A program made the translations under genes and the position numbers. The notes under the pieces are model-generated. The model saw only the letters and a program-made list of their open reading frames with translations. It was not told the DNA's origin and ran no database searches. A stretch of 64,000 nucleotides of DNA from Pedobacter cryoconitis (lineage in GTDB: Bacteria > Bacteroidota > Bacteroidia > Sphingobacteriales > Sphingobacteriaceae). This document shows positions 32,354 to 34,038 of this stretch, piece by piece. Each line of letters opens with the position of its first letter. The stretch's first letter is position 1. The stretch spans positions 62,001 through 126,000 of the forward strand of contig JAAAFW010000015.1 in assembly GCA_019352875.1 (NCBI GenBank), written 5' to 3'.

Positions 32354-32549
32354 ATAACTCATGTAAAACTATACTAAGATCACTCTATGTACCATATTGT
32401 GAAAATAATTTCTTAAATCACTATACTGTTTTAAAGTGATCCTTTGACCGACAGCAAATAAAAAAGGTCTAAAATATTATCTGAACTTTTCCAGACCAGT
32501 ACGTGAAAATTATTTGATTAGCAGCTTATAAAGTTCTGGTAGACCATCT

Positions 32550-33149
32550 TTAAACCATTCCGGAATATCCTTTATCCTGCAAAGGTGAATGGGCGCCTTC
32601 TATTGATAGGTGGCAGATGGGCAGGATCGTATCTGAAGTATCCAATACCTCAATACTGTCAAACATTCGGAAATTTTTGTTTAACATTTGCATATTACCT
32701 TGGAAATTATTGTCGATATCTAATGGGGTAACATGAAACCCTCCCTTCTTAAACCTGATTTCCACGCGTTGGATAGATTTCACTACATCTTTAAGCCCAC
32801 AGAATACCAAATGAATATTGAAGCCAGCCGCTTTAAACTGCTGTGGAGTAGCCCATGCTCCAACACCGGTAAAATGCCCTTCATAAGCAAAATTAAGACG
32901 GTTAGCAATATGTGAAGTGATCAATGTTCTGAAATGTTGCTCAAGTGATTCATTCGCCTGCTTTTTAGCCTCCTTACTGCTTCCATGCTGTTTGTAGAAT
33001 TCTGTGCTTTTTTGGGTATAAAAGATATCACCATCAAAAATATCTAAGTCGCTAAATTCTGGTGGAAGAAGGGCCTGTTTTAGCGTGGACTTGCCCGCGC
33101 CGTTACTCCCTGTGATAATAAATAGCTGAGGTTTAACGGATAAGGACAT
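32550..33149 (-). CDS. Zeta-toxin-like P-loop kinase (C-terminus probably frameshifted)
   Basis: A 199-residue P-loop protein of the zeta toxin/AAA type. Walker A is GSNGAGKS at 14-21, followed by IFDGDIFYTQ and FAYEGHFTG, the positions where zeta toxins bind the sugar-nucleotide substrate and hold the catalytic Asp. Zeta toxins phosphorylate UDP-N-acetylglucosamine and block wall synthesis. A small gene upstream overlaps its start by 17 bases and is the likely antitoxin. The present frame ends in LQDKGYSGMV, but moving one base at about 32567-32573 opens a frame reading DIPEWFKDGLPELYKLL and stopping at 32510. A one-base insertion is therefore likely; it may inactivate or merely shorten the protein. 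Confidence 0.78.
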   Translation of the reverse strand: MSLSVKPQLFIITGSNGAGKSTLKQALLPPEFSDLDIFDGDIFYTQKSTEFYKQHGSSKEAKKQANESLEQHFRTLITSHIANRLNFAYEGHFTGVGAWATPQQFKAAGFNIHLVFCGLKDVVKSIQRVEIRFKKGGFHVTPLDIDNNFQGNMQMLNKNFRMFDSIEVLDTSDTILPICHLSIEGAHSPLQDKGYSGMV

Positions 33150-33471
33150 GTTTGTCTCTTAACGCTTTAATCTCAGTTTTATTAAGTACCCTGACCACCT
33201 GTCTTGGAACCTCAATGTTGCTCTTGTCAAGTCTTTCGATGCGAATGAGGCCATCTGGGTATTCGTAAAATGCCTCATCATCCTCTAAGCATTCATCAAA
33301 AACCATGAAACAATGCCCTCTACCAAGATCATTCTCCCTAAGTTTGCGAATAACCTGTCGAAGTTTCTCGATCCGCCCCTGATATTGTGTATAGGAAGTA
33401 GCATAACTTTTTTTTTCTAAGCTTTCTTGGTCACCAAATAGTTTTCCTTGTATATATTGCTTACGTTCCAT
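33133..33471 (-). CDS. Small partner of zeta-like toxin, putative antitoxin
   Basis: A 112-residue protein, probably soluble, with a charged helical middle (IEKLRQVIRKLREND) and a C-terminal half ending VLNKTEIKALRDKH. I do not recognise a named domain. The gene precedes the zeta-like kinase on the same strand, and their reading frames overlap by 17 bases, the tight arrangement usual for toxin-antitoxin pairs. It has a very good promoter whose -7 box lies 4 bases before its ATG, so its mRNA may be leaderless. The antitoxin role is inferred from position, not from sequence. Confidence 0.7.
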   Translation of the reverse strand: MERKQYIQGKLFGDQESLEKKSYATSYTQYQGRIEKLRQVIRKLRENDLGRGHCFMVFDECLEDDEAFYEYPDGLIRIERLDKSNIEVPRQVVRVLNKTEIKALRDKHVLIR

Positions 33472-33771: not shown

Positions 33772-34038
33772 TTAAGGGCTTACTGTTTCAATATCTCCTT
33801 CAGGATTCTCTTCGTCATGATCTTTCGGCAATTCTGCCTCTGGCTCTTCCTGATCGTGTTCTGTGTGTTTAACTGGCTTGTCTTCCTGATCATCCGATAG
33901 TGTTTCTTCAGGACTATTATTATTCTTTTGATCATTTGGTTTTCCGTCCTTTTCTGTGTCTGGTGTAACCGTTTCGATTTCCTTCTGTATCTCCTCTGCA
34001 GGCTCGGGATGTTGTTGTGTGTTTTTTGATTCTTCCAT
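33772..34038 (-). CDS. Acidic low-complexity protein, function unknown
   Basis: An 88-residue protein made almost wholly of Glu, Asp, Lys, Pro, Gln, Asn and Thr, with repeated EE/DE pairs and no hydrophobic segment. It is expected to be disordered and cytoplasmic. It contains the similar segments IETVTPDTEKD and IETVSP near its middle and end. No homologue is recognised. Its strand, start (ATG) and downstream hairpin support a real gene; the neighbouring small membrane and PRC-barrel genes are divergent from it. Low-complexity composition leaves some chance that it is not translated. Confidence 0.5.
   Translation of the reverse strand: MEESKNTQQHPEPAEEIQKEIETVTPDTEKDGKPNDQKNNNSPEETLSDDQEDKPVKHTEHDQEEPEAELPKDHDEENPEGDIETVSP

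What the first reader, a model, noticed from the sequence alone, without database searches (positions are those of the whole stretch)
32510..32580. Frameshift at the 3' end of the zeta-like gene
The current frame ends in GYSGMV, but a one-base shift at about 32567-32573 gives DIPEWFKDGLPELYKLL with a stop at 32510. That tail looks like real protein, rich in Pro, Trp and Leu, while the present tail does not. The gene may be inactivated (which would tame the toxin), be subject to frameshifting, or carry a sequencing error.
Basis: seen in the sequence. Interest (0 to 1): 0.5.

Follow-up and report, generated by a model that had tools for sequence, protein, structure and literature searches.

The report
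Frameshifted toxin-like kinase beside intact partner
A bacterium carries a toxin-like enzyme gene whose last stretch has slipped out of reading frame; related bacteria break the same gene again and again while keeping the small neighbouring gene, as expected if the enzyme is harmful and the neighbour protects against it.

Summary
The 199-aa zeta-type kinase ORF (32550-33149, minus) leaves its family's reading frame near 32567-32576 and ends GYSGMV. The family tail (DIPEWFKDGLPELYKLLIK, stop 32512-32510) lies in the next frame. All 26 open-frame relatives compared carry a Pro-x-Trp tail in frame. In an intact relative it forms two confidently predicted C-terminal helices.

The lesion is not a one-off. 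In a frameshift-aware comparison 14 of 40 kinase genes of this subfamily are broken (12 of 38 without two loci added because they looked broken). The small gene directly upstream is unbroken in 40 of 40. A search started from that partner gave 41 close loci in 399 genomes; by my tally 20 kinases there are broken, reduced or missing, while 40 partners are open.

Best reading: a recent natural mutation truncated the toxin half of a toxin-antitoxin-like pair and left the presumed antitoxin. Sequencing error is less likely, programmed frameshifting unlikely; a weakened rather than dead enzyme is possible. Toxicity and neutralisation are inferred. The partner has no convincing Pfam or NCBIfam match and may be a new antitoxin family.

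The parts
32550..33149 (-). Zeta-type kinase ORF, 199 aa, truncated by the frame change. Walker A GSNGAGKS and the DGD aspartate are present (D41, which lines up with PezT D66).
   Evidence: Pfam Zeta_toxin PF06414 E 1.1e-8, 35.2 bits against cut-off 22.3; alignment to PezT; alignment A4
32567..32576 (-). Interval in which the reading frame of the family changes relative to the upstream part of the gene
   Evidence: Comparison with in-frame relatives
32510..32569 (-). Out-of-frame remnant of the conserved C-terminal tail, DIPEWFKDGLPELYKLLIK and stop
   Evidence: 26 of 26 open-frame relatives carry the equivalent tail in frame
33133..33471 (-). Upstream partner gene, 112 aa, open; its end overlaps the kinase start by 17 nt; presumed antitoxin
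   Evidence: open in 40 of 40 loci; partner family search

Best explanation
This is a two-gene toxin-antitoxin-like module of Sphingobacteriaceae: a small upstream partner followed by a zeta-fold phosphotransferase. In this genome the kinase gene has suffered a recent natural frame mutation near its 3' end. It replaces the two conserved C-terminal helices with six unrelated residues. Shown: the frame change; the tail's conservation in relatives; repeated breakage of the kinase gene across the subfamily; integrity of the partner. Inferred: that the kinase is toxic (probably by phosphorylating a nucleotide sugar or similar small molecule, as zeta/PezT do), that the partner neutralises it, and that truncation destabilises or inactivates the kinase. 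On this reading the module is disarmed by losing the toxin first, because a cell can survive losing the toxin but not the antitoxin.
For: Kinase identity: Pfam Zeta_toxin above cut-off; the model of the intact relative L039 (mean pLDDT 91.4) has PezT, zeta and their complexes as top Foldseek hits (2p5t_B E 4.3e-8, 1gvn_B E 1.2e-7) and zeta 3q8x_D at Z 15.3, rmsd 3.0, 185 aligned. Tail: present in frame in 26 of 26 open-frame relatives; P197, W199 and P205 are kept in 13 of 14 aligned rows, the window being the exception; it forms helices 198-203 and 205-211, block means 94-95. Repeated decay: 14 of 40 kinases broken with 18 lesions, counting the L064 truncation, against 0 of 40 partners. If lesions fell by length alone, the chance that the first lesion of all 14 falls in the kinase is 0.007; leaving out L079 and L080, which were added because they looked broken, it is 12 of 38 and 0.015. 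Reverse search: 41 close partner loci in 399 genomes, 20 with a broken, reduced or missing kinase (my tally over). Intact pairs evolve under strong constraint (kinase dN/dS 0.03-0.09 in four unsaturated pairs). [quoted passage not shown]
Against: No assay; toxicity and neutralisation are inferred. Only one genome of this species is held, so the frame change has not been seen in a second isolate. The partner has no recognised antitoxin domain. A PezT lacking its last 11 residues stays toxic, so loss of the tail need not abolish activity. The kinase gene is about 2.4 times as long as the partner, which accounts for part of the asymmetry; each search direction favours loci that keep the gene searched for. 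Three lesions (L035, L053, L038) lie close together just before the P-loop, so not all need be random decay, and most assemblies are drafts. The E. coli survey reports many orphan toxins as well as orphan antitoxins.
Confidence: 0.7

Rival explanations
1. Sequencing or assembly error: the gene is intact in the organism.
For: A single frame change in one assembly of 22 contigs; no reads available; the rest of the gene looks conserved.
Against: Genome 99.18% complete, 0.76% contamination. Nearby ORFs of 294-1059 aa run open at full length, though they were not compared with relatives. No homopolymer of 5 or more A/T or 4 or more G/C within 25 bases of the site. The subfamily's kinase genes are broken in 13 of 39 other loci and their partner genes, from the same assemblies, in none, so a real lesion has a much higher prior than an error.
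Confidence: 0.15
2. Hypomorph: the truncated 199-aa kinase is still made and partly active, giving a tamed toxin that the partner still controls.
For: The residues invariant in the 14-row alignment, including the P-loop and the DGD aspartate, are retained in the window. PezT lacking its last 11 residues can be maintained in E. coli and remains toxic, killing more slowly than normal (PMC3062530). The partner is kept.
Against: The lost part holds near-invariant Pro and Trp and two confidently predicted helices. PezT was cut after residue 242, beyond the last residue aligned to our model (model 202 with PezT 230), so the window loses more of the shared fold.
Confidence: 0.2
3. Programmed or leaky frameshifting makes both forms.
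For: The tail is still well preserved in the other frame, and the stretch at the change is short and A/G rich.
Against: 26 of 26 open-frame relatives read the tail without any shift. Broken relatives are broken elsewhere and with other signs. No slippery site shared with relatives was seen.
Confidence: 0.04
4. Phase variation: the gene is switched by reversible slippage.
For: Lesions are frequent, mostly single, in otherwise conserved genes; three lie close together before the P-loop.
Against: Lesions lie all along the gene; near the frame changes no run of equal bases is longer than six, and several lesions are stops, deletions or truncations.
Confidence: 0.02

Closest known systems
Epsilon/zeta and PezA/PezT toxin-antitoxin systems (1gvn, 3q8x, 2p5t)
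   Same: Kinase fold, P-loop, catalytic-type aspartate (window D41 lines up with PezT D66), small partner gene upstream of the kinase
   Different: Kinase shorter (about 210 aa when intact). The partner shows no convincing sequence match in Pfam, NCBIfam or the PDB and no convincing fold match. Activity untested.
AvrRxo1-ORF1:ORF2 complex (4z8t and others)
   Same: Zeta-fold kinase crystallised with a second protein; aligns over 197 residues at Z 13.9, rmsd 3.6
   Different: Known here only from structure lists and paper titles; no sequence relation tested. Nothing here suggests that the window gene is an injected effector.
Degrading TA loci and orphan antitoxins (Klebsiella pneumoniae survey PMC7192599, E. 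coli survey PMC10790755; passages read)
   Same: Antitoxin-like genes left without a recognisable toxin
   Different: Those surveys count paired and unpaired coding sequences; here the lesions of one subfamily are counted base by base. The E. coli survey also reports many orphan toxins, unlike the one-sided pattern here.

Membership tests
Zeta toxin kinase family (PF06414) | Profile match above the curated cut-off | tested here: met
   35.2 bits against cut-off 22.3, E 1.1e-8, residues 6-173
Zeta toxin kinase family (PF06414) | Zeta/PezT fold | tested here: met
   Model of intact relative L039 (the window protein itself was not folded): 3q8x_D Z 15.3, rmsd 3.0, 185 aligned; 1gvn_B Z 15.1; 2p5t_H Z 14.9; Foldseek E 4.3e-8 to PezT
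Zeta toxin kinase family (PF06414) | P-loop and catalytic aspartate (zeta Asp67, PezT D66) | tested here: met
   GSNGAGKS and G40-D41 invariant in 14 of 14 rows; DGD aligned with PezT DGD; role of the aspartate from PMC3062530
Zeta toxin kinase family (PF06414) | Complete C-terminus of this subfamily | tested here: not met
   The window lacks the tail in frame; 26 of 26 open-frame relatives have it
Epsilon/zeta toxin-antitoxin system | Phosphorylation of UDP-N-acetylglucosamine and growth arrest | not testable with these tools
   No assay possible
Epsilon/zeta toxin-antitoxin system | Antitoxin gene directly upstream of or overlapping the toxin gene | tested here: met
   In 40 of 40 loci a partner ORF ends between 14 nt before and 17 nt past the aligned start of the kinase; that it is an antitoxin is inferred
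Epsilon/zeta toxin-antitoxin system | Epsilon or PezA antitoxin | tested here: inconclusive
   0 of 19 partner proteins match an epsilon family in Pfam or NCBIfam; no PDB sequence or clear fold match; a weak match does not exclude the fold
Programmed frameshift gene | Shift site conserved among relatives, tail out of frame in them too | tested here: not met
   Tail in frame in 26 of 26 open-frame relatives
Pseudogene / decaying TA locus | Lesions in the toxin gene, antitoxin gene spared | tested here: met
   14 of 40 kinases (12 of 38 without two added loci) against 0 of 40 partners; 20 of 41 partner-found loci with no whole kinase, 40 of 41 partners open

The most novel reading that the evidence does not exclude
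The upstream 76-118 aa proteins are an undescribed antitoxin family for zeta-fold kinases in Bacteroidota, and they have a use of their own, such as protecting the cell against incoming or paralogous kinase modules. They are therefore kept intact while the kinase is repeatedly lost.
Probability: 0.3. Interest if true: 0.6.

Novelty: new variant of a known kind. Interest (0 to 1): 0.4.

Why it matters
A frame change in one gene is ordinary. What adds value is the natural experiment around it: dozens of related loci in which only one of two genes is repeatedly broken. That supports, without any assay, the view that the kinase is costly and the small neighbour protective, and it nominates an unclassified partner family as an antitoxin. 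It also gives intact and truncated versions of a zeta-fold kinase, so the need for the C-terminal tail can be tested directly.

Tried and rejected
Programmed frameshift: rejected because relatives read the tail in frame. Phase variation: disfavoured because lesions do not share a site or a repeat, though three lie close together before the P-loop. Stops listed inside L049, L052, L061 and L077 by the genome searches were not counted as lesions: the frameshift-aware alignment runs to the tail of these genes with no event. L048 was counted as open although it lacks residues before the tail in frame.

dN/dS: 20 pairs were run. Nine were saturated at synonymous sites in the kinase, among them window against L039, and say nothing. 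Seven unsaturated pairs with a broken member gave 0.04-0.17, four unsaturated intact pairs 0.03-0.09, so most lesions look recent. The partner was not always the more constrained gene (L046/L047: partner 0.24, kinase 0.09).

Phage and plasmid carriage: of 600 pattern matches in viral contigs none encoded a relative of the kinase; plasmids gave 63 records with distant kinase matches, under 30% identity in the 15 rows shown, and no partner match. PADLOC gave only weak matches, many to P-loop ATPases; the NCBIfam hit to an ABC-F model is far below its cut-off. The partner's fold found nothing above Z 4.9. Literature: searches listed no paper that I recognised as describing this Bacteroidota pair; only titles and abstract starts were seen, except passages of PMC7192599, PMC10790755, PMC2701414 and PMC3062530 (section 6 of the last read whole). 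A search for 'zeta' in PMC2701414 found no occurrence.

How the 40 loci were chosen: 30 places at E 1e-30 or better (the window among them), 4 further loci, 1, 3, plus L079 and L080 (E about 2e-20), which I added because their hits looked like pieces of a broken gene; hence the second count of 12 of 38. Left out: the kinase of G877, split over two contig ends (L073, L075). L037 is the same gene as L032; L040, L067, L068, L069 and L071 repeat counted loci. The kinase search missed loci with sizeable kinase remains (L113, L117), so decay is undercounted there. The 41 partner loci are those at E 3.8e-22 or better; the weaker rows were not scored. Five of those were fetched (L121-L125); two show kinase-like stretches with frame changes (L122, L125). 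In one search the loci matched on the minus strand were read in the wrong orientation and those rows were not used; the output was cut in the middle, so of the open genes among L049-L054 the tails were first seen.

Full report
What is there. The minus-strand ORF 33149..32550 encodes 199 residues and ends GYSGMV; the frame that starts at 32569 encodes DIPEWFKDGLPELYKLLIK and stops at 32512-32510. Directly upstream, 33471..33133, is a 112-aa ORF whose end overlaps the kinase start by 17 nt.

Which C-terminus is real. Close relatives were found in named genomes (Mucilaginibacter sp. OK283 66%, Deminuibacter soli, a Parafilimonas MAG, a Flavihumibacter MAG, Chryseobacterium candidae) and unnamed ones. 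L039, L041 and L042 read PLSNAEIPNWFKTGLPEIYRLL, PLSDSELPEWFKRYLPKMYSQL and PLSDEDLPEWFKSGMPNIYALL; the window reads PLQDK in its first frame and DIPEWFKDGLPELYKLL in the next. I wrote a protein-to-DNA aligner that allows frame changes and ran it on 40 loci, the window included. All 26 open-frame genes align through the tail without a shift, and all 26 hold Pro-x-Trp there; the window has one frame change, before IPEWF. In alignment A4 (14 rows) P197, W199 and P205 are near-invariant, and the printed rows show the window as the exception. The predicted structure of the intact relative L039 (mean pLDDT 91.4) gives two helices there, 198-203 and 205-211, with block means 94-95. The tail is therefore a real part of the protein and the window's present end is not.

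What the gene is. Pfam names it Zeta_toxin (PF06414, 35.2 bits, cut-off 22.3). The L039 model's best structural matches are PezT and zeta (by VIA-align zeta 3q8x_D Z 15.3, rmsd 3.0, 185 aligned, and 1gvn_B Z 15.1). Polynucleotide kinases follow closely at Z about 14 (157-159 aligned), so the substrate is not settled by fold. The DGD aspartate lines up with PezT D66; the D66T variant of PezT is nontoxic (PMC3062530 section 6).

Not an isolated lesion. 14 of 40 kinase genes are broken: the window, L035, L036, L038, L042 (four events), L053, L054, L062, L063, L064 (truncated), L074, L078 (two events), L079 and L080 (fragment with a stop, next to a reading frame that looks like an IS transposase). 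L079 and L080 were added because they looked broken; without them it is 12 of 38. Lesions lie from codon 5 to codon 194 of the references; near the frame changes no run of equal bases is longer than six. Three (L035, L053, L038) lie close together just before the P-loop. Several broken copies have close intact sisters (L054 beside L052, L078 beside L046 and L047, L074 beside L060 and L076), so these breaks are recent. Many assemblies are drafts and L035 is from a MAG, so some lesions could be assembly errors; L038 and L080 come from single-contig genomes.

The neighbour is spared. The upstream partner is present and open in 40 of 40 loci, and frame-aware alignment finds no lesion in any. One, L078, starts at a contig edge and its first residues are not seen. 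If lesions were spread by gene length (kinase about 210 codons, partner mean 88), all 14 first lesions falling in the kinase has probability 0.007 and all 18 events 0.002; for the 12 of 38 it is 0.015, and 0.004 for 16 events. These loci were found through the kinase, which favours loci with a recognisable kinase, so I searched the other way. A profile of 19 partners matched in 56 of 399 family genomes; 41 loci form the close group (E 3.8e-22 or better). Of these, by my own tally over searches have an open kinase, 11 have a broken one already in the set above, and 9 have no kinase hit. In those 9 (L112-L120) I found a kinase with four frame changes (L113), an internal deletion with a frame change (L117), amino-terminal stubs of 19-47 residues (L114, L115, L118, L119), only a weak trace (L112), or nothing convincing (L116, L120). 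The partner is open in 40 of 41; G340 (L115) has one in-frame stop, and L120 aligns only to residue 81 of its reference. This second count was found through the partner and so favours loci with an intact partner; it is the two searches together that show the one-sidedness, since among the 40 loci of the first no kinase lacks its partner.

Reading. A cell can lose a toxin but not the antitoxin while the toxin is made; one-sided decay is what a toxin-antitoxin pair predicts. [quoted passage not shown] coli survey also found many orphan toxins. The window lesion is then a recent natural loss. The enzyme may be weakened rather than dead: PezT without its last 11 residues stays toxic, and the residues invariant in A4 are retained in the window. 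But the window loses part of the shared fold that the shortened PezT keeps: model residue 202 pairs with PezT 230, and PezT was cut after 242.

The partner. None of 19 partner proteins matches Pfam convincingly (single-member weak matches, best E 0.033), and NCBIfam gives only single-member weak matches (best E 0.0022). There is no PDB sequence match (best E 0.38) and no structural match above Z 4.9 (model mean pLDDT 84.0). It may be an undescribed antitoxin family; that is a proposal. The same genome holds a second, diverged partner-kinase pair, with the partner at G000:C10:1273458 and an open kinase at 1273708.

Rivals. Sequencing error cannot be excluded without reads, but the genome is nearly complete, nearby ORFs run open at full length (not compared with relatives), and the subfamily's lesion rate makes a real lesion much the likelier. 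Programmed shifting and phase variation are disfavoured.

Taxonomy. The window's genome shares its family label with G187, whose contig C15 has the same length (660,186) as the Mucilaginibacter sp. OK283 contig and holds the same kinase at 100%, hence Sphingobacteriaceae by inference (the family of Mucilaginibacter is recalled); the species was not identified.

Noticed in passing
L002 (G000:C10:1273458-1274331): A second, diverged pair of the same partner and zeta-type kinase in the window's own genome; the kinase is open and its tail reads W-x-x-x-GLP.
   Followed up: partly
L080 (G403:C1:894900-898900): A partner much like the window's, in the same genus, sits beside a kinase remnant with a stop and a large deletion, followed by a reading frame that looks like an IS transposase subunit (label from recall).
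   Followed up: partly
L062 (G286:C4): A second independent frame change in the tail, just past the PxW motif and of opposite sign to the window's.
   Followed up: no
L117 and L118 (G294:C2, G399:C1): Identical partner proteins in two genomes beside differently reduced kinases: an internal deletion in L117, a 47-residue stub in L118.
   Followed up: no
L035, L038, L053: Three kinase genes have frame changes within the first 14 codons, just before the P-loop; whether this is chance or a weak spot was not tested.
   Followed up: no
window 33772-34038, minus strand: An 88-aa ORF very rich in Glu, Asp and Pro upstream of the pair.
   Followed up: no
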